A stretch of 64,000 nt of DNA from assembly GCA_019448385.1 (NCBI GenBank), contig JAGTXO010000016.1, positions 682,001-746,000 of the forward strand. The letters run 5' to 3'. Positions 8,301-25,500 of this stretch are shown one piece after another. Each line of letters starts with the position of its first letter. Position 1 is the stretch's first letter. This DNA is from Diacronema lutheri (lineage: Eukaryota; Haptophyta; Pavlovophyceae; Pavlovales; Pavlovaceae). Below the pieces are notes generated by a model, which saw nothing but the letters and a program-made list of their open reading frames with translations, was not told where the DNA came from and did no database searches. Made by a program: the position numbers and the translations under genes.

Positions 8301-11042
8301 CACCTCCGCATCGACGGCGGAGAGCACGTCGTCGAGCAGGTAGACGTCTGCACGCGCGTAGCACGCGCGCGCAAGCGCGACGCGCGCCTTCTGCCCGCCC
8401 GACAGGTTGATGCCCCGCTCGCCAATCTCAGTCGAGTCGCCGGCGGGCAGAGAGGCGATGTCGGCGCCGAGCGCGCACGCCGCGACGACGGCGGCGTAGC
8501 GCTCGGCGTCAAAGGGCTCGCCGAAGAGCACGTTGTCGCGGAAGGACAGGTTCTGGATCCACGCCTCCTGCGCGCAAAAGGCCACGCGCCCGCGCACGGC
8601 GACGTGGCCCCGGACGAGAGGGATCTCATTGGTCAGCGCCGAGAGGAGCGACGACTTGCCCGAGCCGACGGGCCCGGCGACGATCGTCAGCGTGCGCGGG
8701 CGGACGCGCAGGTCGATGCCGCGCAGCGTCGGCGCGTGCGCGAGCGCCGCGCCGCCCGCGGACGCCTCGCGCGAGAGGGCAGACGCTGCGCTCGCAGGCG
8801 GCGCCGGCCCGTGCGCGCGCGCGCGCGCGCCCGTCGCGCTGCGCGCGACGGGCGGCCACGCGAAGTCGCACTCGTCGAGGATGAGCACCGGTTGCTCCCA
8901 CTCAGCGAGCGCGTCGCCATCCGCGCCGCTGTCCGCCGCGCCTGGTGCGCCGTCCGCGGCCTGCGCGCGCGCTGGCGGCGGTCGCGCGAGCGGCGCGCCG
9001 GCGCCGGGCGGCGGCGGCGGCGGCGGCGCCATGTAACGGTTGTACCCCTGCCTGCGTAGCTCGAGGGCACGTGCCCACTCGGCGTCAGTGGCGCAGCGGT
9101 ACTCGCTCACTTCGGGCGCGGCGAAGAAGTCACCGAGCCGCCTGCACACGACGAGCACGTCCACGACCCGTGTGATGGACGACGGGATCGCATTGAGCGG
9201 GAAGCGGAGCACATTAAAAAGTGAGAGCGACGTGAACGCCTTGGATGCGGTGAGCTCGTTGCCGAGGAGCACGTAGACGATGAACGTCGCGACCGTCACG
9301 AAGAGCGGGGTCGCGCCCCACAAGAAGGTGGAGAAGGCGCCGAGGATTGCGTTGCGCCGCACCTCCGCCAACTCCGCGTCGCGCAGACGGCCAACCGCCT
9401 GTGCGAACGATGGTTCCCACGCGAAGAACTTTAAAATCCGCATCCCCGAGACGACCTCGTTCGTAAATTTGACGCGCCGGTCGCGCGCCGCCATCGTCCG
9501 CTTCGTCAAGCTCATCTGCATCTTCGCCACCTTCGTGTTGAGCGGCATCAGCAGCGTTAGCACGAGCACGCCAGCGAGGCCCGCCGGCCCGACCTGCGCC
9601 CACAGCATCGCCGTTGCGAGGACCACCTGCACCCACGCGCTCCAGATGAGGTGCAAGTACGGAAAGGCGTCGCCGAGCTTCGCCGCGTCGATCTGCATGA
9701 ACGAGACGATCGCGCCCACGCCGAAGCGCGCCTTCGCTTCGTACGAGAGCGAAAGCGCTTTCCGGTAAACTGCCTGCCCGATCCCGGCGCGCGCGCGCAG
9801 CGAGAGGATGTACCCGCGCTGGAAGTACTGGCCGATGGCGAGGGACTGGATGGTCGCGCCGAGGAAGAGCACCGCCGTGTACCCGTACACCGTCTCGATC
9901 GGCTCGCTCGTCGACCCCTCGATAAAGGCGGTGATGCGCGCGATCATCAGCGGACCAATGAAAACCGCACCGTCGTTCACGAGCTTCAGCAGTCCGGTCG
10001 CGCAAAAGTAAAGTCCGTATGTCCGGAAGAGCGCGGCGAGGAAGGAGGGCGCGCCGCCGCGCGGCGTGCGCAGCTGCTGCTGCCGCCAGCTCGCCTCAAG
10101 CAGCCGTTGGTTGTGCACGGCCGAGCTGACGGCCGGCGTCGCGAAGAGGTCCGCGTGCTCGAGCGGCCGCGCCGCGCCGAGAACGAGCAGCACGTTGCAC
10201 CAGCGGAACGTGAGCCGGTCCCAGAAAGAGGCGACCTCGTCGCCCGCCAGGCGCGGCCGCGCCGCGACGCCCGCCGTCGGCGCCATCGTCGCCGCGCCGC
10301 CGGCCGGCGCGGGCGGGAGAGGGAAGGATGGCGGCGGCGGTGCGTGCGCGCCGCCACCGTCGCCTCCGCCGGCGGCCGGGCGCGTCCACGAGTCCATCTG
10401 GAAGAGGCCGCAGCCGCCGAGGAAGAGGGCTGGCACGTAGCTCGCCACGCGCAGCGCGAGCAGCACGCCGCGCGCGCGCGCGCGCGCCGAGCCCGAGTCG
10501 CGCGCGCCGCCGTCGCCAAGCGCCTCGAGCGCGAGCACGTCCGTGCGCAGCTGGAGCGTGCGCGGCAGCACGGCGAGGATCCACCAGAGGCGGAGCGAGC
10601 GGCACGGCTGCTTGTCCGACGCGGCCTCGCGGAACACGAGCCACGCGCACGCCGCCCACGACGCCGTCGTGCACGCCGCGCCGACGAGCGCGACGCGCCG
10701 CTCGGACGCGAGCGCCGTCCCAGCCGTGCTCGGCAGCGCGGCGTACGCAAGGACGGCAGCGGAGACGGCGGCAAGCGCGAGCGACGCCGCCTGCTCGGCG
10801 CGCTGCAGCGCGGGCACCGCCGCACGCTCTGGCTCGCCCTCGTCGCCCGCCGCAAAGTCGGCGAGCAGCGCCCGCCGGCGCGGGTCGGCGCCGCCGCCAA
10901 AGCGCGTCGAGAGCGAGCGCGCGCGGTGCACGCACACGGCGAGCACGAGCGCGAGAAAGACGGGCGCGAAGACCAGGTCGTGCACCCACTCGGGCACGTC
11001 CACGTAGCGCACGAACGAGCCCGACGCCGCGGCGAGCGACAT
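5397..11042 (-). CDS. ABCC (MRP)-type ABC transporter, full length
   Basis: ATP-driven exporter of organic anions or conjugates, in plasma or vacuolar membrane. Four exons: 11042-6599, 6418-6339, 6059-5933, 5770-5397, total 1,674 residues, frames 1-0-1. Start is the ATG at 11042 (MSLAAASG); upstream frame has only a GTG. Order: N-terminal TMD0, TMD1, NBD1 (Walker [10 protein letters not shown] near residue 787, LSGGQ, Walker [10 protein letters not shown]), TMD2, NBD2 (Walker [10 protein letters not shown] near 1459, [19 protein letters not shown], His loop IAHRLHT). Both NBDs look complete, although NBD1 has LLDD where NBD2 has LLDE-like DEATASID, usual for ABCC asymmetry. Introns 1 and 3 have GTGCG donors; intron 2 (6338-6060) is GC-AG between SIIPQ and DPVLF, exactly restoring the family consensus. 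Substrate cannot be told. Confidence 0.93.
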
Positions 11043-11152
11043 GCCTGGGTCTTGTCGGGAGTGCGATGCACGCCGAAGGGCAGGGACGCAATGGACCAAC
11101 TAGAAAGTCCGGCAAAAGGGCCGTCCGAAGAAGTTCCGACACCCGCACGAGG
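11043..11152. promoter_or_regulatory. Short divergent intergenic region, ABCC / RIO1
   Basis: 110 bases separate the two start codons, so both promoters and 5' leaders must fit or overlap here. I see no TATA element. The ATG at 11064 is in frame with RIO1 and is an alternative start that would shorten this gap. Confidence 0.5.
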
Positions 11153-11306
11153 ATGGGGGAGGAGCACGTGGAGGCGTTGGACGGCGTCGACCTGCGAGCG
11201 TTGTCGGCGGAGGCCGGCGCGGCGATGGTCGAGCTAGGTGGAGACGCTGGCGACGTGGAAGTGAGGGTACACGTGCATGACGACGACGGCGGTGACGGCG
11301 GCGGCT

Positions 11307-11346
<40 letters not shown>

Positions 11347-13321
11347 CGCGGCCGAGGCGGACGCCGCGCTGCGCGCGCTCGGCCCTGACGCGTTTGCGTC
11401 GTGGGCCGACGCGTCTGTGGGCGGTGGCGGCAGCGGCAGTGGTGGCGCGCGCGGCGCGCGCGCGCAGGCGCACGTGGGCGACGCGCACACGGGCACGTCG
11501 CACGTGGGCAGCGCGGCGGCCAACTCGATCCGCGCGTCGGAGAAAAAGGCCGAGGCGCACCGGCCGGTCGGGCTGAGCCGCGAGGGTCGCGCGACGAGCG
11601 AGGGCGTGCTCGACCCACGCACGCGCATGATCCTCTTCAAGCTGCTCTCTGGGGGCCAGCTCGCGTCGATCCATGGCTGCATCTCCACGGGCAAGGAGGC
11701 CAACGTCTACTATGCCCTCTCGCACGTGCTCGCGCCGCGCGCGGCGGGCGCCGAGCCGGCGGCGGCGCGCGAGGTGGCGGTCAAGGTGTTCAAGACATCG
11801 ATCATCGTGTTCCGCGACCGCGACAAGTACGTCTCGGGCGAGTTCCGCTTCCGCCATGGATACTGCCGTTCAAATCCGCGCAAGATGGTCCGGACATGGG
11901 CGGAGAAGGAGATGCGAAACTACCTGCGCATCCACGCCGCCGGGCTGCGCTGCCCCGAGCCGCTGCTGCTGCGCGGGCACGTGCTCCTCATGCAGTTCGT
12001 CGGCATTGACGGCCGCGCCGCGCCGCGCCTCAAGGACGCCGGACTGTCCGGTGCAAAGGCGCGCAGCGCGTACACCCAATGCGTCCTCATGATGCGACGG
12101 CTTTATCACGACTGTCGGCTCGTGCACGCGGACCTGTCCGAGTACAACCTGCTCTGGCTGCGCAACGAGCTATGGCTGATCGACGTGTCCCAGTCCGTCG
12201 AGCACGACCACCCCAACGCCCTCGCCTTTTTGCGCAAAGACTGCGCCAACGTGGTCGCGTGGGCGCGTAAGCATGGCGTCGCGCCCTGCCTCTCCGCGCG
12301 CGCGCTCTTCGAGTTCGTCACGGACACGCGGCTGCCGACGCACGGCTCGACGGGACCCGCGCCGTCGGTGCTCAGCGCGCCGCTCGACGCCGCCGCCGCC
12401 TCCGACGCCGCCAACGGCGCGGCCGGCGCGGCCGGTGGCCCGGCGGCCGCGCGCGCGGCCTCGGCGGTGGCCGACGCAGTCAGCGCGCAGATCGACGCGG
12501 CGCTCGACGCTCTCCACGCGCGCGCCGAAGAGGAGGAGGCGTGGCTCAACGACGACGACGGCGACGACGAGGTGGAGGAGGCGTTCGTGGGCGGCCGGCG
12601 CGGCGGCGACGACGACGGCGCCGACGGCGCCGACGGCGCCGACGCGCCGTCGGCCGACGGCGCAGCGGCCTGCGCGGGCGCGGGTGGCGCGCGCGCTCGC
12701 GCCGCGCTGCGCGCCGAGGCCGCCGTCTCGGCTGCGGTTTTCCAAACGGTGCATATTCCGCAGAACCTTCGGCAAATTTCTCGCAAGCAATACGAGCGTG
12801 ATGCGGCGCTCGCAGCGCAGGGCCGGCGTTCCGAGATGCTGTTTGGCGATGTTGTGCAGGCCGGGCCGCTGCCCGAGGCCGTCGCCGGCCTCGTCGGCGG
12901 CGGCGCGCTGCGCGCCGCCGTCGACGCTGGCGTGGGCAGCGCGGGCGAGGGCGGCGCGGGCGCGGGCGCTGCGGCCGGCGAGGAGCGCACGAGCAGCGCG
13001 GTTGAGGGCAGTGGCGACGAGGACGACGGCGGCGAGGGCAGTGGCGACGACGACGGCGACGAGGGCGGCGGCGAGGGCCGCGAGGCGCGCGCGCGCCGTG
13101 CGCTCCACCGGAATGAGGACCCGGACGCGCGGCGTGAGCGCAAACGGCTCGTCAAGGAGGCGCAGCGTGCGGCGCGCGCAGAGAAGCTGCCAAAGCACGT
13201 CAAGCGCAACCCGGCGGCCAAGGCGAAGAGCAAGGGGCGCGCGGCGGCGATGGCGGGGCATTTAAAAGGCGGCGGGAAGGCGCACGCCAAGGGCGGCGCG
13301 CTCGCGGTGCTCGTGGACTGA
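11153..13321 (+). CDS. RIOK1: RIO1-type atypical serine kinase
   Basis: Atypical kinase/ATPase acting in late 40S ribosomal subunit maturation. Single exon, 722 residues from the ATG at 11153 ([11 protein letters not shown]); a start at 11064 would add about 30 basic residues. The N-terminus has a run of about 13 Asp. The RIO domain follows: [13 protein letters not shown]-loop [20 protein letters not shown] with the ATP Lys, [12 protein letters not shown], hinge MQFVG, catalytic loop HADLSEYN, metal-binding [12 protein letters not shown]. Then an Ala-rich and acidic linker, and a basic C-terminal tail ([13 protein letters not shown]) typical of RIO1 nuclear/nucleolar shuttling. It is longer than yeast or human RIO1 because of acidic and Ala-rich inserts. 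The missing long linker seen in RIO3 and absence of the RIO2 winged helix favour RIO1. Confidence 0.93.
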
Positions 13322-13433
13322 GCGGCCGTCTGTTTGCTGCGTGCGACACTTGCAAGCGGGCCCTTTGCGCGCTCCGGAAGGGGGGCGCGCGTCGACATTC
13401 GACAGTCACTGCGCGCAACTAGTCGGAAAAGAG

Positions 13434-14468
13434 ATGCCGATGGTGAGGCACGATGGCGGCGTGGGTCATTCGGCGGAAGACGGAGTCTTCGTCTTCCTGC
13501 TCGCCGGCCAGTCGAATATGTCGGGGCGTGGAACGCTTCCGTCGCCCAGCGCCGCCGCTGCCTTTGCCGATCCGCGTATCCGCGTCTGGCGCGGGCCCGA
13601 TGGCTGGGCGCCCGCGGCGGACCCGCTGCACGCGGACAAGCCAACCGCCGGCGTCGGCCCGGGGCTCGCGTTCGCACGCGCCGTCCTGGCGCGACTGGGC
13701 GAGGGCGCAGAGATACGTCTGGTGCCTGCCGCGGTAGGTGGCAGCGAGATTGCGCGCTGGAGCCCGCGCGGCGGCGACCTATTCGACGCGGCGGCCGCCG
13801 CCGCGCGCGCGGCGCTCGCCGCGTCCGACGAGCGTGACGGCCTCGCGCGCTCCGACGAGCCTCCGAAGCTCGCGGGCATCCTGTGGCATCAGGGCGAGTC
13901 GGATGCGGTGAGCGCCGCGCTTGCGACCGCGTACGCCCCCGCGCTGCGCGAGCTCCTCGCCGCGCTGCCCGGCGCGTGCGGCTCGGCCGGGGCAGCCATC
14001 GTTCTCGGCGAGCTCGGGCTCGGCTTCCTCGACACGTCGCGCGGCGGCCGTTTCGAACACGCGCCGTCGGTGAACGGCGCGATCTGCGCTGTTGTGGCGG
14101 ATGCGGTGGCCACCGGCGCACGCGTCGGCCTCGTGAGCGCGCGCGGCCTCGTCGACCGTGGCGACCGTCTGCACTTCTCGTCGGGCTCAGCCGAGCTGCT
14201 CGGCGAGCGATACGCGCGCCGCTGGCTGCAGCTCGCGGTGCCGCGCGCCGTCGCCGGCGCGGGCGAGAACAATGCGGAAGGCGGATTGTTTGCGGATGGC
14301 AAGCTCGACCCGCCGCTCCTCTGCGCGTCGCCAGCCGCACTGGCGCTCGGCGGGCGCCGCCCCGAGTCCAACGTTGAGGGCGAGTCACACTCTTTTTTTG
14401 AATGTGATGCACAGTTGGGCGCTGGCGGCACCCGTCCGCCTCAGACCGAGGCGACGATGCTCAGCTAG
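13434..14468 (+). CDS. SASA/CE6-family carbohydrate esterase
   Basis: SGNH-like esterase that removes acetyl groups from sugars (sialate O-acetylesterase or acetylxylan esterase type). 344 residues from the first ATG (MPMVRHDG); upstream frame to 13341 only has GTG. Motifs: FLLAGQSNMSG holds the nucleophile Ser in block I, AVGGSEIARW gives the oxyanion Gly, WHQGESD is the family block, and DRLHFSSG carries the catalytic Asp/His pair. No clear signal peptide with this start. It is convergent with the epimerase-mutase gene, 41 bases apart, which may reflect a shared sugar theme or chance. Substrate not predictable. Confidence 0.85.
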   Translation: MPMVRHDGGVGHSAEDGVFVFLLAGQSNMSGRGTLPSPSAAAAFADPRIRVWRGPDGWAPAADPLHADKPTAGVGPGLAFARAVLARLGEGAEIRLVPAAVGGSEIARWSPRGGDLFDAAAAAARAALAASDERDGLARSDEPPKLAGILWHQGESDAVSAALATAYAPALRELLAALPGACGSAGAAIVLGELGLGFLDTSRGGRFEHAPSVNGAICAVVADAVATGARVGLVSARGLVDRGDRLHFSSGSAELLGERYARRWLQLAVPRAVAGAGENNAEGGLFADGKLDPPLLCASPAALALGGRRPESNVEGESHSFFECDAQLGAGGTRPPQTEATMLS

Positions 14469-14509
14469 CGCCGAGTGAGTGAGCGAGTGTGCTGCCGCGA
14501 TCAGCAGGC

Positions 14510-17500
14510 TCAGGGTGAAAGCTTGTCCGCCTCCTCGGCGGCGGTGCCCTTGCCGCCCGCCGCGACGGCGCCGGCTGCGGGCGCGGCGGCCGCTGCGCCG
14601 ACCGGCGCCGCAACCGCCGCGGGCGTCGCGGCGGCGGCAGTCGCAGTCTTGACGGCACTCGCGGTCGCGGCGACGGTAACGGCGGCGGTCGCGGCGTCGG
14701 TCGCGGCGGCAAGTACAGGCGCGAGATCTGGTGCGATCACGAGCTCGGGCTTGAGAGGCACGCTCTCGCCAAGGATCTGCGGCAGCAGGCCAACGAGCAG
14801 CCGCTCGGCGCCCTCGGCGCTCGCCGCCGACGCCGACGCGTCGACGGCCGCCTCGATCGCCGCCCACCGCTCGGCCGGCACGGCGCGCACGCGTTGCGCG
14901 CTCGCGGCGATCAGCTGCCAGCCGACGACGACCGGCGCACTCTCCGGGCACTGCGCGGCCGTGTCGAGGCCGAGCGCCGCCTTGTAAAGCGTGCAGAGCG
15001 CCGGCGTGAGCGGCACGGAGCCGGCGCCGACCGCGCCGCCCGCCTCGGCGACGGCGGCGAAGGCAAAGTCGGTGGCGCGCAGCCGCGCGCCGAGCGCGGC
15101 GGGCAGATGGCCGCCGAGCGCGCCGGGGCGCACGATGAGGAGGCGATCGGGCAGTCGTGCGTGGAAGGCGCGCGCGTGGTGCGCGATGGCGGACGCGTTC
15201 GTGCGCGCGGCGCCGTGCGGGATGCGATCGAGGTGGTGCAGGCCCTCGTACAGCATCTCGCCGGCGGGGCGCTTCACGTCGCCAACGCCGCAGCGCTCGT
15301 ACGAGTGCACGAAGAACTTGGTCCGGACGGGCGGCACGATCGCCTTGAACGCGGACGCCCACGCGTCCGACTCGCGGCAGTGCCACGCGACCGCCGACCA
15401 CGTGGGCAGCGGCTCGAGGTGGACGGGAGCGCGCGTGAAGTGCGTGTGTCGGCGCGGCGCGCCGTCGGGCCTTGGCCGCGCGGCCGCAAGCTCCTTAGCA
15501 GCGTCGACCGCACGGTTGTACGGGCGGTAGCGGTTGTTCACCTTGTTCGGCGTGTTGAAGGTGGCCTCGACGCCCTCGGCGTTCCCGCCAAAGAGCATCG
15601 CGTCAATCGCGTCAACGCCGAGCATGCACGAGTGATCCTGGTTGGCCACCTCGTACTTCCACGAGCCGAAGCGCCCGCGCGACCAGATGTGCGACTGGCG
15701 GAGCGCCGCGTCCGCTTTGTGCATATGCATGTTGCGCTCGACGTAGGGCACGGGGTAGCCGTATTCGAGTCGGTCCGCCCAGACACTCTCGATGCGCGCG
15801 TCGGCGGGCAGCATGGTGGAAAGGCGGAGGCCGTCAAGCACCTTCGCCTTGAGCTCGTCCATCGACTTTGGCACCGGCCGGTATCTGGCGCGCGTTGGGT
15901 GCGCGGTGGGTGCAAGGGCGGGAGGCGGCGCGGTTGGCGCGTGGCCGGTGGGTTGGCGCGTGGCCGTTGGCGCGGAACGGTGGCGCGTAACGGTGGCGCG
16001 TGGCGGTGGCGCGTAACGGTGCGCGGCGGCGCGTGGCGGTGGCGCTTCGCACTTTGACTCGGAGACTTCGACGAGCAGACTCCATTGCTCGAACGGTTTG
16101 GGCACGACATGCGGTGAAAAGTTGGATAAGACGGTGACACGGTAGAACGGGAAATCCTCCTCGGGAAAGTAGACCCAATGCACGCCGTTCAGAGAGGCTG
16201 GCGGCTGGCCCCAGATGCCCACGCCAACCAAATTGACGGTCTGGTGCTTGAACTTTTCGTCCGAATCTGCGAGCAGCGCACGGCGGGCGGGCGGGCGGGC
16301 GGGCAGGCGGGCAGGCGGGCGGGCGGGCAGGCGGGCAGGCGGGCAGGCGGGCAGGCGGGTAGGCGGGCAGGCGGGCGGGCAGGCGGGCGGGCCAGGCGGG
16401 CGGGCGGGCGGCGGCGGGCAGGCGGGCGGGCAGGCGTGGTGTTAGCGCGCGTGCGCGCACAGCCCGGCGTGAGGCGCGTCGCTTGGCCACGCGGCGGCGG
16501 CGGCGAGCGCGCGGCGACGGGCAGCGCGCGCTGCCTTGCCTGCAAACGCGGCCATCTCCGGATTGTCCGGGAAGGCGTGCTTCAGAAGCTGGTCGACGGG
16601 TACCTGCGCAAGGGGGGGGGGGGGGGGGGGGGGGGGGGATGGGTGGTTAGGGCAGGGGTTTGAGCAGGGCAGGGCAGGGCAGGGCAGGGCAGGGCAGGAA
16701 AGGGCAGGGCAGGGCAAGGCAGGGCTCTCACGGTGGAAAGAAGCGCGTCAAAGCCGAGCCGCGTGCCATCGCGCAGCTCGATCGACCGGTCCCCGCCCGG
16801 ACTGCCGCCCGGACTGGCCCCCGTCTGCGCGGGCGCATTTTCTGCGGGCGGTGGCGGTGGCGTGTCGCGGATCGCGACGAGCTCGGCATCGAGCTTGATG
16901 TTCTCCTTTGGCAGCCCGTCAAAGACCGCTTGCCAGATGTGTCCGGTACCGTTCATCGGATATCGGAACTGCGCGTTCGGACCCCATGCGGGCGCGTCCT
17001 TGCGGTTGATCACATTTGAAAGGATGTCGGCGAATTTGATCGTGGCGACGCGCTCGCCCACCCAGTTTGTGTTGAGCTGCTCGGGCGGGTGCGCCCACAC
17101 CTGCGCGCGCACGAGAGGGCGCAACGGATCGTAGGTGGGTGGGTGGGTGGGTAAGCCCGGGTGGGTGGGTGGGTGGGTGAGCCCGTGTGGTGGGTGGATG
17201 GGTTGGGAGGTGGGTGGGTAGGTGGGTGGGTGGGTGGGTGAGCCCCGAAGCCCGTGTGGGTGGGTGGGTAGGTGGTTGGATGGGTAGGTGGACGGGTAGG
17301 TGGGGAGAGGGGCGGGAAGAGCAGCAGAGAGAGGCGCGCGCGATGGCTGCGCCGGAGCTGCGGCTGCGCGCGCGGACGCCGCGCCGCGCCTTGAAATTGT
17401 ACGGCGCCATGAACGACTTTGTGAGCGCCTTGCCAAAGCCGTTGTGCAGCCACTCGAGGAAGTTGCGCGGGGGCGACGCCGCCGCCGCCGCGTCCGGCGG

Positions 17501-20500
17501 CTTGAGCGTCGCGAGGTCCGCGACGATCTCCGCCACCTCCGCCTCGGGCAGCCGCCACACGTTCGCCTGAATCGGGTAGCCCACCCACCGCTGCCGCATC
17601 CAGGCGGGAGACCAACGTTGGTGATAGAGCCACTCCTTCGGCTGAAATGCGCGCGGCGCGTGGCGCGTGGACGGCGACGGGAATGCACGGATGGATGGGG
17701 CGGGGAAAACGCACGTGTGACGCTTGTGACGCTCGTGACGCACGTGACGCAAGTGTAACGCTCGTGCGCGTGCGCGCGCCGCGCCGCGGCGGCGCGCGCG
17801 CGGCGCCGAGCAGCGGCCTCAGGCGGACGCGGGTGCGTGCGGCGGTCGGGTGAGTCGGGTGAGTCGGGTGAGTCGGGCGAGTCGGGTGAGTCGCGTAACT
17901 CGCCTGCAAGTATTCGTCAAGGAGCGCGTCGAAGAATTCAAAATGTGAGAAGAGGACGTGCACGCCAATGTCCCACGTGAAGCCCTTGGCGTCCGTAACG
18001 GACGTGGCGAGACCGCCCGCCTTGCTGCCCTTGTCGATGAGCTGCCAGTTTGTGTACCCGAGCTCCTTGAGGCGGTACGCTGCGCACAAGCCCGTCGGGC
18101 CCGCGCCGACGATCAAGATGCGCGGGTCGTCGCGCAGCGGCGGTGAAGTGTCCGTCTCGGCGGTGTACGCGGGGCCGGCGTAGGCGAGGGGGTCGATCAC
18201 GGACGCGTGGCCCTTGGGGTAGTTTGCGAGGCGCCAGTGCCAGGCGTGCGCGATGCCCTGCTCGAGCTGCGGGTACTTGGGCTCCCACCCCAACTCCGCC
18301 TTAATCTTGGCAGGGTCGGAGAAGAGCGTGTGCGGGTCGCCCGGCCGGGGCGGGCCCACCTCCGTGGGCACCGTTTTGCCCGACACGCTCTCGACGAGCT
18401 TGATCACCTTCTTCACCGTGTACCTAGCGCGCGGCCGCGCGCAGCGCGCGCTCGCCGCGCGAATGAGCTGGCGCGCCGCGCCCGCCGGCCGGCCGGCCGG
18501 CCGGCCGCGCGCGCGCGCCGCGCGCGAGGCCGCGCGCCGGCGCCGCGCGCCGGCCGGGCGCGGCGTACCCGCGGCCGACGCCGACGTTGTACACGAGGGG
18601 CGCGTCCGGGTCGAGGCGGTCAAGGGCGTCGAGGTGCGCCTGGACGAGGTCGGTCACGTGGATGTAATCGCGAACCGCCGTGCCGTCCTCTGTGGGGAAG
18701 GCGGCGCCCATGATGGTGAGCTTGGCGCGCAGGCCGAGAGCAGCGTCGATGGCGGCGTCAATGATGCGCGGGTAATCCCACTGCTCACGATGGACGAGGA
18801 CGGGGCCGAGGCGGCCGGCGGGGTCGGCGCCCATCACGTTGAAGTAGCGCAACGACGCGACGGCGAAGCGGCCGCCCTTGGCGCGCAGCACGCGCGACTT
18901 TGCGAGGATCGACTGCTCGGCGTGGAGCTTTGAGAGGCCGTACGGCGAGGTAGGCCGCTGGGGCGTCTCCTCGGTGATGGGGAACTCGGCGGGCTCGCCA
19001 AAGGTGGCGCACGACGAGGAGAAGATGAGCGAGCGCACGCTCGCCGCCTCCATCGCCTGCAGCAGCTGCAGCGTGCCGACCGTGATGTTCTGGAAGTACT
19101 TGTCCGGCGCGCGCATCGACTCGCCGACGTACGCGTTACCCGCGAAGTGGACGACGGCCTCGACGGAGCGCTCGCGCATGAGCGCGGCCATCGGGCCGGG
19201 CTCGGCGAGGTTCTGCGCGAGGCGAGGCGAGGCGCGGAGAGGCGGAGGGTGCGGCGCGGTCCGGTGCGGCGCGGTCCGGTGCGGCGCGGTCCGGTGCGGC
19301 GCGGTCGAGTGCGGTCCGGCGAGGCAAGGCGCGGTCCGGTGCGGTCCAGCGAGACGAGGCGCGGTCCGGTGCGGTCCGGCAAGGCGAGGCGCGGTCCGGT
19401 GCGGTCCGGCGAGGCGAGGCGCGGTCCGGCGCCGGAGAGGGGCGCGTGCGCTGAGCCGGACGCGCTGCGGGACGGTGCGGGCGGCGGGCGCGGTTGCAAA
19501 AGCGGTGCGGCCGGTGCGGGCGGCGGGCGCGGTTGCAAAAGCGGTGCGGCCGGTGCGCGCGGCGGGCGCGGTTGCAAAAGCGGTGCGGCCGGTGCGGGCG
19601 GCGGGCGCGGTTGCAAAAGCGGTGCGGCCGGTGCGGGCGGCGGGCGCGGTTGCAAAAGCGGTGCGGCCGGTGCGGGCGGCGGGCGCGGTTGCAAAAGCGG
19701 TGCGGCCGGTGCGGGCGGCGGGCGCGGTTGCAAAAGCGGTGCGGCCGGTGCGGGCGGCGGGCGCGGTTGCAAAAGCGGTGCGGCCGGTGCGGGCGGCGGG
19801 CGCGGTTGCAACAGCGGTGCGGCCGGTGCGCGCGGCGGGCGCGGTTGCAAAAGCGGTGCGGCCGGTGCGGGCGGCGGGCGCGGTTGCAAAAGCGGTGCGG
19901 GCGGTGCGGGCGGCGGGCGCGGTTGCAAAAGCGGTGCGGCCGGTGCGGGCGGCGGGCGCGGTTGCAAAAGCGGTGCGGCCGGTGCGGGCGGTGCGGGCGG
20001 TGCGGGCGGTGCGGGCGGCGGGCGCGGTTGCACGGGCGGTGCGGGCGGGCGGCGCAGGGCAGGGCAGGGCAGGGCAGGGCAGGGCAGGGCAGGGCAGGGC
20101 AGGGCAGGGCAGGGGCAGGGGCAGGGGCAGGGCAGGGGCAGGGCCGCGCGCAGGCCATCCCGCCCCCACAGCCTGGCAAATGGGCGTTGCAGCCAGGCCA
20201 TATCGCCCCCACAGCTGGCCCGCAGCCCTGCCCAGCCCTGCGCTTCGCGTGGCTGAAGGCCAGCCATGCGCAGCGTTCGTGTTCGCTTGGCGTGGCTGGC
20301 AAATGGGCGTTGCAACCCCACGAGCCGCCCTCCCGCCCGGCTTCCAGGCACGCATGCCGTCCGCCCCAGACCCCGCGGCGTGGGCGCACCTGCTTGACGA
20401 ATTGAAAATCGGCGTTTTTGGAGGCCTTGGCGAGCTCCTGCAGCCGGAGGACCGTGTCCCACGAGCTGCGGCTCATGTCGTCGACCGCCGTCACCTTGAA

Positions 20501-21217
20501 GCCGCCACGGTCGAGGAGGAGCAGAGCGAAATGCGAGCCGATAAAACCAGCCGCGCCGGTGATCAAAATCGACTTGGGCGATGCGGGCTGGATCGGGCGG
20601 GGCACGAAGATGGGGCGCGGTGGCGTTGGCACCGCCTTCGGCACACTGTGCTCGTCCGGCCCTTCCTCCGCGTCGTCGTGGTTGGACGCATCGCGGGCGG
20701 CGAGCAGGTTGTTCAGAGCCGTACGTCGGACATCGGACGGGCGCTTGCGCTTGAGCAAGCGGTGCGTGCTGACGAGCTCGCCCTGCGCGAGCTTGCGCTG
20801 CTCGCCGCCCGCGCCGCTCTCGTCCTCGTCATCGCCGTCGGGCGCCGCCACCTGCGAGCCGCCTTCGGGCACGCCCGCCGCGTCGTCGCGCGCGGCGAGC
20901 GCGGCGCCCGCGCCGAGCGCGCCAAACGCGCCGGACGTCGCGCTCTCCTTGGGGCAGTCGCACGGCGGCGCGACGAGCGCGGCGGCCGGCGGGCGCGCGC
21001 GGCCGAACGCGGTGAAGCCGAGTACGAGGATTATTCCCGCCATCAGCACGATCAGGTAGGACGTTGAGCGCGCGCCGGCGCCGCCGCCGCGCGCGGCCGG
21101 CGCGTGCATCGGTGGGCGACGCGCCTTTGGGTCCTCGGGCTCGGGCGAGCCGGGCGCGGCGCGCTCGGGGTCCATGCCGTACGCGGGAACGCCTGAGCGG
21201 TTGTACAGGTGCGACAT
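14510..21217 (-). CDS. Fusion: UDP-glucose 4-epimerase + UDP-galactopyranose mutase
   Basis: Eight exons: 21217-20390, 19212-18569, 18423-17904, 17641-17390, 17100-16732, 16603-16540, 16266-16053, 15884-14510; 1,421 residues. All seven junctions stay in frame. N-terminal signal anchor at about 54-71 (SYLIVLMAGIILVLGF) implies a type II Golgi/ER protein. Epimerase from about 215 to 555: TGAAGFIGSH NAD site, HFAGNAYVGES, SSSCATFGEP with YGLSK catalytic Tyr/Lys, LRYFNVMGADP, RDYIHVTDL. Mutase from about 592: FAD site VGAGPTG, GGLATS, DIGVHVLFSH, MAPYNFKVWAHP, WVGERVA, YFPEEDFPFYR, SRGRFGSWKYEV, NQDHSCMLGVDAID. Together they would convert UDP-glucose to UDP-galactofuranose. After residue about 1050 comes an unrecognised domain (AVAWHCRESDAW, FFVHSYERCG; loosely like DUF3431) and an Ala-rich tail. 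Introns 3, 4 and 6 are GC-AG. Confidence 0.88.
16281..16440 (-). repeat. (CCCGCCTGCCCG)n-like repeat in intron 6 of the fusion gene
   Basis: Imperfect 4- and 10-bp units (plus strand gggcgggc / aggcgggc) fill the 3' half of the GC-AG intron 16539-16267, up to 12 bases before the acceptor. On the sense strand it is C-rich. Confidence 0.85.
16612..16638 (-). repeat. Homopolymer: 27 C on the sense strand, intron 5
   Basis: Plus strand shows 27 G. In the transcript this is a run of 27 C placed 8 bases upstream of the acceptor TTGCGCAG at 16604, that is in the polypyrimidine-tract position. A (CCCTG)n block at about 16665-16727 precedes it. Confidence 0.9.
17134..17310 (-). repeat. (CCCA)n-type repeat in intron 4 of the fusion gene
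   Basis: Plus strand gggtgggtgggt blocks, sense strand CCCACCCA, interrupted by three short spacers with a shared word (cccgtgtggg / gagcccg). It occupies most of the GC-AG intron 17389-17101. Confidence 0.85.
17845..17902 (-). repeat. 9-bp repeat in intron 3 of the fusion gene
   Basis: About six copies of gtgagtcgg on the plus strand (sense CCGACTCAC) start right at the GC donor (GCGAGT at 17903). The first repeat unit overlaps the donor, so the repeat may have grown out of the splice site. Confidence 0.75.
19475..20035 (-). repeat. 39-bp minisatellite in intron 1 of the fusion gene
   Basis: About 14 head-to-tail copies of a 39-bp unit (plus strand ggtgcggccggtgcgggcgg followed by cgggcgcggttgcaaaagc), with single-base variants only. 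An 11-bp (ggtccggtgcg) family lies before it at 19255-19430 and (AGGGC)n after it. The intron 20389-19213 is 1,177 bases and almost wholly repeat. Long open frames through it in several phases are artefacts of the 39-bp (13-codon) unit. Confidence 0.93.
20052..20143 (-). repeat. (AGGGC)n, sense (CCCTG)n, intron 1 of the fusion gene
   Basis: Same pentamer as the satellite at 3060-3960, again on the pyrimidine-rich sense strand although this gene points the other way. Ends in (caggggc)n. Confidence 0.9.
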
Positions 21218-21393
21218 CCACTGTCCTCGCCACGGACAAGTCGGAGGCGTGCGCGCACAACGCGGCGCTCACCGAACCAGGTCTGCCCGGGTTCGACCTT
21301 CGACCCGACCCGGAAATTTACGCGCTCGTCCTCCATCGTGCAACCGCCGGTCAACCGCCGGAGCGGCTCGGCGAGAGCGCGACACGCGCCGCC
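21218..21393. promoter_or_regulatory. Divergent intergenic region, fusion gene / TXNDC9
   Basis: 176 bases between start codons. No obvious TATA box or repeat. The region is less GC-saturated than average around 21270-21320. Confidence 0.5.
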
Positions 21394-22354
21394 ATGAACC
21401 TCGGCGGGAAGACGGGCGCGATGAACCAGGCGGCGCTCGACAGCGCGTCGATGGGGATCACGCAGGACGCCGTCCTGCGCAACGTCAACCGCGATATCGA
21501 GCTTGCCGCCGCGCAGGAGGCGGCCGGGCAAGAGGTGACGGCCATCTCGCTGCCGCACACCGCCGAGGCGCTCGAGGAGGCGGCGGAGAAGCGGACGGAC
21601 ACACTTGCGGATGAGCTCGACGAGCTCGACGAGTTCGATGACGATCCCGCGCTGCGCGCGCTCGAGGCGCGCCGCATCGCCCAGATGAAGGCCGCGTGCG
21701 TGCGCGGCGTTTGCTCGCGCGCCGTCGCGCCGCGCAGCACGCGCGCCGTGCCGCTTCGCGCCGGTCGTGTCGCGCGCGCGCGCGCGCTCAAGCGCTGCGC
21801 GCTCGGCTGTGCGCGGCGCGCGCGCTCGCAGGGCGAGCAAAAAGTTGGCCAACCAGGCCAAGGGCCACGGCGAGCTGCGCGACATCGTCGAGGAGGAGTT
21901 TTTGGCCGAGTGCGTCAAGAGCGACCGCGTCGTCGTGCATTTCTACCACGCCGACTTTGAACGGTGCAAGATCATGGACAAGCACCTCAAGCTGCTCGCG
22001 CCCAAGTACACCGCGTGCAAGTTTGTCCGAATCGACGCCGAGAAGTGCCCGTTCTTCGTGCACCGGCTGCAGATCCGGACTCTGCCGACGGTCTTGGTCT
22101 TCCACGATGGCGTCAACAAGGACCGGCTCGTCGGCTTCGACGAGCTCGGCGGCGAGGACGACTTCGCCACGCGCACGCTCGAGCTGCGCCTGCACCAGGC
22201 CGGCGCGATCTACATCAAACCGTCAAAGTCCTCCGCCCAGAAGTCGGCCCTCGGCTTTGTGCACAGAGGCACATACTCCGACGACGACGACTCGGACGAT
22301 GGGCCGGCCGCGCTCGGCGCGCGAGGCGACGAGGACGGGAGCGACGACGACTGA
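21394..22354 (+). CDS. TXNDC9: TXNDC9/phosducin-like thioredoxin-domain protein
   Basis: Cytosolic co-factor of the CCT/TRiC chaperonin in tubulin and actin folding in animals and yeast (PLP1). Two exons, 21394-21695 and 21832-22354, 274 residues; intron phase 2 with donor GTGCGT and acceptor GCTCGCAG. The junction reads RIAQMKAA-ASKKLANQAKGHGELRDIV. Family marks: FDDDPALRALEARRIAQ, HGELRDIVEEEFL, VVVHFYHADFERCKIMDKHL (single Cys in place of the thioredoxin CxxC), LPTVLVFHDG, RLVGFDELGG. C-terminus is acidic (SDDDDSDD, EDGSDDD). The protein is somewhat longer than animal TXNDC9 because of N- and C-terminal extensions. Confidence 0.9.
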
Positions 22355-22473
22355 GGGTGGCAGGCCCGCGCGCGCGCCAGGCTCGGCCGCGACCACCCTT
22401 GGCCAGCGGTGCGTGCAGGCGGCCGGGCACGGTTTTTAAAAGGAAGCGGGAATCGCTGCCGCTCATCAGCTCA

Positions 22474-22499
22474 CCCCCCCCCCCCCCCCCCCCCCCCCC
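22474..22499 (+). repeat. Poly-C tract (26 C) between convergent genes
   Basis: Lies in the 174-base gap between the TXNDC9 stop and the stop of the ARM/IQ gene. It is flanked by tttttaaaa-like words (22434-22440, 22528-22535) that could serve as A/T-rich 3'-end signals. Nothing else seen in the gap. Confidence 0.85.
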
Positions 22500-22528
22500 A
22501 CTTTGAACACACCACGGGTGGGATGATT

Positions 22529-25500
22529 TTAAAAAGGGCGCGACGGCGACCATGGCGCCGCACCGTGGCCATCACGGCTGCCGTCACGGTCGCCGTCGGA
22601 CGCCATTGTGGCCGCGAGCAGCTCGGCGCACGTGACGGGGTCGCCCGCGCCGTCGTCAGCCCCCGCCGAGCTGGCGCGCAGCGGCCGCCGCAGCCCCGGC
22701 CGCGTGCCCGGCCGCGTGCCCGGCCGCGTGCTGCCGTACAAGGCGCCGGTGGCGCGCGCCGAGTCGCTCGGACTCGTGCCGTCGATCGTGCCGCCGAGCT
22801 TTTCAAAATCGGCGAGCGACAGCGCGAGGGCTTCCGCGCCAAAAATGCCGGCGCGCGCGCGCTGCATGCGGTCGTCGCCGGCCGCGCCGCTGACCGGCGC
22901 CTCCCATGCGACGATAGGCGGCGGCGGCGGCGTGCGCGCGAGGGGCGCGGCGAGCGCCCGCGCACCGGGCCGCCGCTTCGAAACGCGGGCGCTGTAGATC
23001 GCGGAGGCCTCCTGCCACGATGGCTGCGGCGACATGCTGAGCGGCGTCAGGCGCGCGCCCGCCCACGCGCCGCCGCCGCCCGCAGCCGCCGCGGCGCGCG
23101 CGTCCGCGGCGGTGGCCACCGTGTGCGCATCCGCGAGCGCCGCGAGGCGGTCCAGCGTGCCGACGCGCTCGATCGCCATCGCGCGCGAATTGGTGGCGCG
23201 CCCGGTCGCTGCGCGGCCGAGCAGCGCCGCGGCGCGCAGCGGCCCGCGCGCCTCGTCGCCGCGGCGGTCGCCGCCGTCGTCGGCCGATGCGGGCCGCTGC
23301 ACGTCGAGTCCGCTCGCGGACCGCGACGCGCGCGGCGGCGGCAGGGTCGAGCCCAACCCGCGCCCCGGCATGTCGCCATGCCCTGGGCCATGCCCTGGCG
23401 ACGTGCCTACGCGCGCGCCGCCCGCCCGTGGCGCGAATGGCACGCTGAGCAGGCTGTTGCCGGGCTTGCCGGGTAGCGTGAGCTGGGGCAGTAAGGTTGC
23501 CGTGCCATGCGCACGGCCGAGGCCGGCAGCGGCGGCCGCGTGCGGCTGCGGCAGGCGGTGCACGGTCGTGGTCGAGGTAGGCGCGAGTTCGTGCAGCGCG
23601 CACGAGTGCAGGCCATCGAGCTCGCGCGCCTGCGCGCACGCGGAGACGGGCAAAGGCACGGTGGAATAAAAAAAGGGGGGAAGACCATTTAAAAAGCGGC
23701 AAAAGGGGACACAGAGAGGGCGCGGCGGGGCGTCGCACAGCGGGTGAGCCGCGCGGCGCGCGCACGCGCAGCGCAGCGGCCGGGCGGCGGCGGCGGCGGT
23801 GGCGGCGGCGGCGGCGGCGGCGGTGGCGGCGGCAGCGTGCACCGCGTCCAGCGACCAGCGCGCGCGCGCGCGCGCGCGCGCGCGCGCGCACCGTCGCGAG
23901 GCGTTGACGGGAGGCGGACGCACGCAACGCCACACGCTCGCGCTCGCGCACACGCTCGCGCGCGTGCACGCCGCCGCCGGCGGCGGGTGGGCCGCCCCGC
24001 GCCGCCGCGCGCGCGGCGGCGACGGCGACAAGCGCGTCAGCCGAGAGTGCGCCGTTGTGCACACGCACGAGAGCGGGCGCACCACCGCGCCACAGTCCGG
24101 GCAGCTGCAGCCGGATCGGCGCGAGCGCGCGCCGGACCACGTGCCCTCGCCACGCCGCCTGAATCACGATGGCTGCCGCGTACCGCGCCGCGCGACGCTC
24201 GAGCGCCGCGTCGCGCGCGCGCGCCGACTCGACCGCCGCGCGCTCGGCGCGCTGCCGCAGCGCGGCGCGCCGGCCCTCCAGATCGGCGCGCAGCGCGCGG
24301 AGCTGCGCGAGCTCGTGCGACGGCTTGCCGCGCAGCGCGCCGAGCGGCCCGCCACCCACGCCGCCAGGGCCGTCGTTGGCGTAGGCGACGTCGACCCGTT
24401 TTCTGCGCGCGGCGAGCACGCGGGCACGCGCGCGACGTCGGGCGCGCGACGGTCGGGACGCGGCGAGCGAGCGGCGTGCGCGCGGCGTGCGCGCGGCGTG
24501 CGCGGCGCGCGGCGCGCGCACCTGAAGGGCTCGTGGACGAGGCGATAATTGCGCTCGGCGCGAAGCCGGCGCAGCTCGCGGCGCGCGGCGCGCCGACGCG
24601 CCCCGGCCTGGATCACGGCCGCCGCGCGCGCGCGCCTACGCGCGCGCGCGGCGGCGAGGCGCTCGCGCGCGCGGACGGCTATGCGGCGGCGTGCGGCGGC
24701 TTGGATGTGCGTGGCGGCGGCGAGGCGTGCGGCGCGCTCGGCCACGCGGCGGTGCCGCGCGACGACGGCGAGGCGGCGGCGCGCGGCCGTCTGGATCGTC
24801 ACGACCGCAACGCCGCGCCGCACGCCGCGCCGAGCGGCGCGCTGCACGGCGCGCGCGGCCGTGGCGCGCCGCAGTCGGCGCAGCTTCGCAGCGCGGCGCC
24901 CCGCGGCGGCGCGCCACGCCGCCTGCAGCGCTACCGCCGCGGCGAAGCGCTCGGCACCGTGCGCGGCGGTTCGCACGCGTGCGCCGCGCGCGCGCCACGC
25001 CGCCTGCGCGACAGTCGCGGCGCGGTCGCGCGCGGCGAGCTCGGCGCAATGCGCGGAGCGTGCGGCGGTGCCGCGCCATGCGGCGGCCAAGGCAGTCGCC
25101 GCGAACCGCGCCTCGTCAAGGCGCGCGCCCACGCTGGCGCGCGCGTGCGCGCCGCGCCACGCCGCCTGCGCGCGTGTCGCGGCACCGCGGCGCGCGGCCG
25201 CGCGCCGGTCGCGCGCAGCGCGCGCGAGCGCGCCGCGCGCCGCGGCGACGACGGCCGTCGCGGCGCGCGCGCGCGCGAATCGGCGCTCGCGCGCGGCGCG
25301 GCGCGCGGCGGCGCCGCGCGCAGCCGCCGCGAGTCGGCTCGCCGCGCGCGCGCGCGCCTCGCGCCCGGCCGCGTGCGCGCGACGGCCGGCGGCCGCGCGC
25401 CACGCGGCCGCGACCACCGTCGCCGCGCCGGCGCGCACCGCGGTTTCGCGCGCGTGCGCCGCGCGCGCGGCTGGGCCGCGCGCAAGGCGCGCCTGCAGCC

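What the first reader, a model, noticed from the sequence alone, without database searches (positions are those of the whole stretch)
14510..21217. One polypeptide joins UDP-glucose 4-epimerase and UDP-galactopyranose mutase behind a membrane anchor
Seen: in-frame exon joins give a signal anchor, then a full short-chain epimerase, then a eukaryotic-type FAD mutase. Known: these enzymes catalyse consecutive steps (UDP-Glc to UDP-Galp to UDP-Galf) and are normally separate soluble proteins. Inference: the fusion channels UDP-galactofuranose production at the Golgi/ER face. I know of no described enzyme with this architecture.
Basis: partly seen in the sequence, partly recalled or inferred. Interest (0 to 1): 0.85.

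Follow-up and report, generated by a model that had tools for sequence, protein, structure and literature searches.

The report
Three-enzyme galactofuranose fusion in algae
A marine alga, like two named haptophyte relatives, seems to carry out successive steps of making (and perhaps attaching) an unusual form of the sugar galactose with a single membrane-tethered protein, where fungi are described as using separate enzymes and a transporter.

Summary
The fusion is real. On the minus strand, eight exons (21217-14510) join in frame into one 1421-residue protein: N-terminal membrane anchor, 4-epimerase, eukaryotic-type UDP-galactopyranose mutase (UGM). The epimerase-mutase junction lies inside one exon, and the same joint stands in relatives named as Emiliania huxleyi and Prymnesium parvum and in an MMETSP transcript. 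The genome fits Diacronema lutheri; this is the only UGM locus found in it.

Two corrections: the epimerase groups with plant UDP-arabinose 4-epimerases, not with the bacterial GalE rows or the alga's other GalE genes; and anchor, sequon and cysteine patterns favour the Golgi lumen over the cytosolic face. Most likely it makes UDP-galactofuranose inside the Golgi. Whether the third domain transfers the sugar is open, because motifs typical of DUF3431 are gone.

The parts
20390..21217 (-). Exon 1: start codon, N-terminal tail, anchor, stem, start of epimerase (aa 1-276)
21002..21058 (-). Predicted membrane anchor, aa 54-72, after a basic N-terminal tail; two Cys (86, 88) follow in the stem
   Evidence: hydropathy 2.37. 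Of nine long epimerase-UGM relatives tested (P0002-P0004, P0006-P0011), seven have a window of 1.7 or more ahead of the epimerase; P0002 and P0008, which start 34 and 44 residues before the motif, do not
18569..19212 (-). Exon 2: epimerase core, SSSC...YxxxK motif
17904..18423 (-). Exon 3: epimerase C-terminus, linker and UGM FAD-binding start in one uninterrupted exon
18189..20581 (-). 4-epimerase domain (aa 213-569), interrupted by introns 1 and 2
   Evidence: TIGR01179 galE E 5.3e-102; tree
17390..17641 (-). Exon 4: UGM
16732..17100 (-). Exon 5: UGM (R765 = AfUGM R182)
16540..16603 (-). Exon 6: UGM
16053..16266 (-). Exon 7: UGM (Y925 = AfUGM Y317, R935 = AfUGM R327)
15521..18131 (-). Eukaryotic-type UDP-galactopyranose mutase domain (about aa 589-1085), interrupted by introns 3 to 7
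   Evidence: 380 bits to T. cruzi UGM; 14 of 15 mapped AfUGM residues identical
14510..15884 (-). Exon 8: UGM end, third domain, low-complexity Ala-rich tail, stop codon
14711..15412 (-). Third domain (aa 1122-1355): divergent DUF3431-like domain with predicted GT-A fold; Cys 1133, 1162, 1261 and 1276 invariant in the 23 rows aligned
   Evidence: P0010 was left out of those rows, its C-terminus ends differently and lacks the last two Cys

Best explanation
A Golgi type II membrane protein of haptophytes that joins, in order, a 4-epimerase related to plant UDP-arabinose 4-epimerases, a eukaryotic-type UDP-galactopyranose mutase and a GT-A-fold domain related to DUF3431. Shown by sequence: the single reading frame, the domain order, its conservation in relatives and the retained active-site residues. 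Inferred: the anchor places the enzyme domains in the Golgi lumen; UDP-glucose (or imported UDP-galactose) becomes UDP-Galp and then UDP-Galf on the spot; no UDP-Galf transporter is then needed; the third domain binds the donor or acceptor, or transfers Galf.
For: One open frame across the epimerase-UGM joint. Fusion kept in relatives at 54-62% identity, 79% in the nearest, a metagenomic one. galE equivalog above cut-off. UGM: 14 of 15 mapped AfUGM residues identical (residue roles as listed in PMC3624792, passages, except W315, which is recalled). UGM found only in this locus in the genome. Lumen: the epimerase groups with plant UDP-arabinose 4-epimerases (support 100/98), of which Arabidopsis MUR4 is Golgi-localised (title in a reference list); an N-[IV]-T sequon at one column in 22 of 22 rows of that group and 0 of 7 other rows; four Cys invariant in the 23 aligned third domains (P0010 left out); N-terminal anchors also in P0020-P0023, which have other domain orders or another epimerase. 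A fungal DUF3431 protein is predicted to be anchored with its C-terminus outside (PMC5519750, passage). Third domain: GT-A fold; DUF3431 relative. DUF3431 stands fused to UGM in 73 of 120 proteins tested, three of them bacterial-type. beta-D-Galf is reported in the haptophyte product prymnesin-1 (PMC7278926, passage).
Against: UGM needs reduced flavin and T. cruzi UGM takes electrons best from NADPH (PMC3624792, passage); NADPH supply in a Golgi lumen is doubtful (recalled). In Aspergillus UDP-Galf is made in the cytoplasm (PMC4630932, passages). Flanking charges say little: the N-flank is more basic than the C-flank by 1 only in this protein. P0002 and P0008 show no anchor. The third domain lost the GRE motif (117 of 119 canonical DUF3431 segments, 0 of 20 here). 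The D. lutheri third domain alone does not match DUF3431 (E 8.7; no Pfam hit to it). Foldseek TM-scores are low (below 0.4 by query length in the 50 rows listed). P0010 lacks two of the four Cys. No biochemical or localisation data.
Confidence: 0.6

Rival explanations
1. Pentose version: the epimerase domain turns UDP-xylose into UDP-arabinopyranose and the mutase domain makes UDP-arabinofuranose, so the product is an arabinofuranose donor.
For: The epimerase domain sits with plant UDP-arabinose 4-epimerases (support 100/98), at 42.5-45.9% identity to the seven rows with plant names, against 35.0-40.0% for the alga's GalE at C7 and the three bacterial rows. No RGP-type UDP-arabinopyranose mutase (PF03214) was found in the genome. 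That some bacterial UGMs accept UDP-arabinopyranose is recalled, not looked up.
Against: The galE equivalog cut-off is passed. P0244, outside the group, is 42.2% identical too. The Galp-contact residues R182 and N457 of AfUGM are kept (contacts as in PMC3624792). One plant UGE group works on both UDP-Glc and UDP-Xyl (PMC3220709, passage), so clade does not fix substrate. DUF3431-UGM fusions occur without this epimerase.
Confidence: 0.15
2. Only a donor-making enzyme: the third domain is a dead GT-A remnant used for folding, dimerising or holding the acceptor.
For: GRE motif in 0 of 20 third domains of the haptophyte type against 117 of 119 canonical segments; A.Y.E 0 of 20 against 103 of 119; NPEE 0 of 20 against 108 of 119; D.D anywhere in only 4 of 20.
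Against: Residues C, Y, E, C, H, H, C, C, G are invariant over the 23 rows aligned, with identity to the first row as low as 19%, which suggests constraint; the domain accompanies the mutase in three domain arrangements.
Confidence: 0.4
3. Cytosol-facing: the anchor holds the enzymes on the cytosolic side and UDP-Galf is still carried inside by a transporter.
For: NADPH is at hand in the cytosol (recalled); the Aspergillus route runs there (PMC4630932); flanking charges are nearly balanced.
Against: Sequon, cysteine and clade evidence.
Confidence: 0.2
4. Gene-model artefact: two neighbouring genes read as one.
For: One listed Pavlovales sp. protein (P0156) covers only the epimerase.
Against: P0156 itself runs through the linker to DDPR, the start of UGM, before its model departs. 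Junction inside exon 3. Single-ORF relatives, one from an MMETSP transcript.
Confidence: 0.02

Closest known systems
Aspergillus Galf route (UgeA, UgmA, UgtA/B transporters, Gfs transferases; PMC4630932, passages)
   Same: Same successive steps: 4-epimerase, mutase, transferase
   Different: Separate proteins, UDP-Galf made in the cytosol, then a transporter; that Gfs is not a DUF3431-type protein is recalled
Eukaryotic UGM (A. fumigatus, T. cruzi)
   Same: 336-380 bits to the solved eukaryotic UGM chains, 14 of 15 mapped residues
   Different: Solved chains are UGM alone; here anchored and fused, with histidine loop G-V-H instead of G-G-H
Plant UDP-arabinose 4-epimerase / MUR4 (UXE)
   Same: Anchor plus 4-epimerase in P0170; same clade; same sequon
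   Different: No mutase or GT-A domain attached in the rows I read (P0170, P0190)
UGM-DUF3431 proteins of corals and starfish (for example P0057 Desmophyllum pertusum, P0082 Acanthaster planci)
   Same: UGM followed by a DUF3431 domain
   Different: No epimerase; canonical DUF3431 motifs; another UGM clade
P0020-P0023 (metagenomic and EukProt)
   Same: Anchor, same UGM clade (support 100/100), same Cys-type third domain
   Different: Another kind of epimerase, placed last (P0020-P0022) or first (P0023); galE 54.1 and 84.0 bits against a cut-off of 262 in the two tested, P0022 and P0023
RmlC/D fusion of Prymnesium parvum (PMC6556577, passages)
   Same: Fused nucleotide-sugar enzymes spread across haptophytes, with activity shown
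   Different: Rhamnose pathway, other enzyme families

Membership tests
UDP-glucose 4-epimerase GalE (TIGR01179) | Score above the equivalog cut-off | tested here: met
   341.1 against 262.3 bits
UDP-glucose 4-epimerase GalE (TIGR01179) | NAD-binding GxxGxxG and S...YxxxK catalytic residues | tested here: met
   TGAAGFIG, SSSCATFG, PYGLSK (the role of the motifs is recalled)
UDP-glucose 4-epimerase GalE (TIGR01179) | Acts on UDP-Glc/UDP-Gal | not testable with these tools
   needs an assay
Golgi UXE/MUR4 group | Clusters with plant UDP-arabinose 4-epimerases | tested here: met
   support 100/98, 29 rows
Golgi UXE/MUR4 group | N-terminal anchor | tested here: met
   aa 54-72, hydropathy only
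Golgi UXE/MUR4 group | Acts on UDP-Xyl | not testable with these tools
   needs an assay
Eukaryotic-type UGM | Sequence match to solved eukaryotic UGMs | tested here: met
   E 1.5e-112 to 4dsg
Eukaryotic-type UGM | Substrate and FAD residues | tested here: met
   14 of 15 identical
Eukaryotic-type UGM | Two glycines in the histidine loop (said to be unique to eukaryotic UGMs, PMC3624792) | tested here: not met
   G-V-H here and in all 11 rows of its clade; G-G-H in 21 of the 24 other rows. So: works like, and is nearest to, eukaryotic UGM, with this departure
Pfam DUF3431 (PF11913) | Gathering score | tested here: not met
   no match in D. lutheri; ortholog P0003 24.9 against 25, P0006 17.0
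Pfam DUF3431 (PF11913) | Profile similarity | tested here: met
   hhalign 94.8%, E 4.9e-8, reversed control 0.1%
Pfam DUF3431 (PF11913) | Conserved GRE motif | tested here: not met
   0 of 20 against 117 of 119; so: relative of, not member of, DUF3431
GT-A fold glycosyltransferases | GT-A fold | tested here: met
GT-A fold glycosyltransferases | DxD metal-binding motif | tested here: inconclusive
   D.D anywhere in 4 of 20 rows; that some GT-A families lack it is recalled

The most novel reading that the evidence does not exclude
DUF3431 is an unrecognised family of galactofuranosyltransferases, and the haptophyte protein is a complete lumenal assembly line: one chain takes UDP-glucose to UDP-galactofuranose and attaches the sugar, so that no UDP-Galf transporter is needed.
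Probability: 0.27. Interest if true: 0.85.

Novelty: new variant of a known kind. Interest (0 to 1): 0.62.

Why it matters
It would be a Galf route unlike the fungal one: in the Golgi lumen, on one chain. It gives a concrete candidate function (galactofuranosyl transfer) to DUF3431, which stands fused to two different kinds of UGM, and a candidate donor enzyme for Galf in haptophytes, where a Galf-bearing natural product is reported. It also predicts galactofuranose in haptophyte glycans in general, which can be checked directly.

Tried and rejected
Bacterial gene neighbourhoods as support for a UGM-DUF3431 link: of 74 UGM loci from genome contigs, only 2 (L069, L077) also hold a DUF3431 ORF, searched with an HMM made from just two sequences. 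Weak, so not used as support.

Viral contigs: P0022 gave no relative; the haptophyte-type alignment gave two loci matching the UGM part (L093, L094). Phage records: 288 records matched, none over 80% of the protein; the 10 rows listed match the epimerase part.

That the best stand-alone hits are UDP-arabinose epimerases may be a length effect (candidates must reach a minimum length, which ordinary GalE proteins miss). I therefore used the tree; P0023 was dropped before it, and L095 fills only 47% of its columns. Its bacterial rows are three unannotated stretches from the phage collection, probably bacterial in origin.

P0149-P0155 look like stand-alone epimerases; the six of seven that I read break off or carry what look like unspliced introns, so I did not count them as separate genes. 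The full-length model was not used for domain contacts. Distances between the invariant cysteines could not be measured: no coordinates were at hand. L077 was dropped from the UGM tree because its ORF was not recovered. P0010 and P0024-P0026 were left out of the third-domain alignment. A check for RNA families in 13000-22600 gave none.

Full report
What is there. The window lies in a 43.49 Mb, 103-contig assembly, which fits Diacronema lutheri NIVA-4/92 (43.503 Mb, 103 contigs, 73.25% GC; PMC8379373, passages), a pavlovalean haptophyte. On the minus strand eight exons from 21217 to 14510 join in frame to 1421 residues. Introns 3, 4 and 6 begin with GC; the frame is supported all the same, since orthologs keep register across the junctions apart from loop gaps at junctions 6 and 7.

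Domains. Residues 54-72 are a hydrophobic anchor. Residues 213-569 are a 4-epimerase (galE equivalog, 341 bits; best solved relative 8wxk, 229.5 bits). Residues 589-1085 are a eukaryotic-type UGM (380 bits to T. cruzi UGM). Of 15 residues mapped from A. fumigatus UGM, 14 are the same, among them H63, R182, Y317, R327, Y419, Y453 and N457; the exception is G62, a valine here. These residues are listed as contacts in PMC3624792 (passages), except W315, which is recalled. That paper calls the two glycines of the histidine loop unique to eukaryotic UGMs; in the clade of this protein all 11 rows read G-V-H, while 21 of the 24 other rows read G-G-H.

Why DUF3431 next to UGM is telling. A search from the DUF3431 part of P0026 gave 220 proteins, 120 listed. 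Of the 120 listed, 73 carry a UGM domain, among them proteins named as Desmophyllum, Oculina and Acanthaster. Three of the 73 (P0094, P0101, P0130) carry the bacterial-type mutase PF03275. The same partner joined to two kinds of mutase suggests a shared job, plausibly use of UDP-Galf. The length limits of that search favour fused proteins, so 73 of 120 is not a rate; the other 47 carry DUF3431 without UGM. Against this, the motifs of DUF3431 are gone in the haptophyte type: GRE in 117 of 119 canonical segments, 0 of 20 here. What is kept instead, in the 23 rows aligned, is four cysteines, a Y-E pair, two histidines and a glycine. P0010, left out of those rows, ends differently and lacks the last two cysteines.

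Which epimerase, and where. In a tree of 29 rows the fused epimerase falls in a group of 22 with plant UDP-arabinose 4-epimerases (100/98), apart from 7 rows that include the alga's two other GalE genes and three bacterial ones. MUR4 of Arabidopsis is a Golgi UDP-xylose 4-epimerase (Burget 2003, seen as a title in the reference list of PMC6019018). All 22 rows of the group have an N-[IV]-T sequon at one column, and none of the 7 others has. With the N-terminal anchor (also in seven of nine long relatives tested) and the invariant cysteines this favours the Golgi lumen. A fungal DUF3431 protein is likewise predicted to be anchored with a large part of it outside the cell (PMC5519750, passage). 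The flanking charges are too even to decide.

How it most likely works. In Aspergillus four steps are listed: epimerase, mutase, transport of UDP-Galf from the cytosol, Golgi transferase (PMC4630932, passages). Here the epimerase and mutase, and perhaps the transferase, stand on one chain that seems to lie in the Golgi lumen, so the transporter for UDP-Galf would be needless. Shown: chain, order, conservation, active-site residues. Inferred: location, substrate, channelling, transfer. The weak points are the need for reduced flavin in the lumen and the lost DUF3431 motifs.

Spread and origin. Of 26 hits, 15 carry epimerase then UGM as here, 4 are shorter pieces of the same protein, P0020-P0022 have UGM, third domain, then another kind of epimerase, P0023 has another epimerase first, P0024 has an anchored UGM alone, P0025 has UGM, GT90 and DUF3431, and P0026 has UGM and DUF3431. 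Pavlovales sp. CCMP2436 (P0156) has a gene model that departs just at the start of UGM. In the UGM tree the fused rows and P0020-P0024 form one clade (100/100), apart from corals, bacteria and viral contigs. So the anchored UGM with this kind of third domain may be older than the addition of the haptophyte epimerase; the different epimerases in P0020-P0023 suggest that epimerases were added more than once.

Literature. Ten searches listed no paper on an epimerase-UGM fusion; only open-licence papers were searched, and several lists were capped (30 of 926, 15 of 186, 10 of 50). Three papers mention DUF3431; I looked into two. One reports a salt-induced fungal DUF3431 gene that was picked for salt tolerance (PMC4212599, passages), the other a membrane-anchored DUF3431 protein beside celA (PMC5519750, passages); neither set of passages gives an enzyme activity. 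A review states beta-D-Galf in prymnesin-1 (PMC7278926, passage). A haptophyte precedent for fused nucleotide-sugar enzymes is RmlC/D, found across the Haptophyta and shown active (PMC6556577, passages).

Verdict. It is a new variant of a known kind: known enzyme families in a combination that I found nowhere described, with an extra domain that may be a transferase.

Noticed in passing
window 13266-14468, + strand: A SASA-type carbohydrate esterase gene (PF03629, E 9e-43) faces the fusion tail to tail, about 40 bases apart.
   Followed up: partly
window 21016-22354, + strand: A thioredoxin/phosducin-like gene (only 21689-22351 was tested), probably in two exons, lies head to head with the fusion gene and may share its promoter.
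   Followed up: partly
window 10214-13321, + strand: RIO1-type kinase gene (PF01163, E 3.8e-62).
   Followed up: no
window 19473-19991: Intron 1 holds a 39-base minisatellite, 13.3 copies, 98% matches.
   Followed up: no
window introns starting at 17903, 17389 and 16539 (- strand): Three of the seven introns start with GC instead of GT.
   Followed up: partly
protein P0094: A 1130-residue protein on a 719,641-base contig joins a GT41-like domain, a bacterial-type UGM and DUF3431; a giant-virus origin is my guess.
   Followed up: partly
proteins P0057, P0058, P0082, P0093: Corals and the starfish Acanthaster carry UGM-DUF3431 fusions, which hints at galactofuranose in these animals.
   Followed up: no
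G000:C47:128351-128902 (L091): The genome has a further DUF3431 match outside this locus (E 9.5e-16).
   Followed up: no
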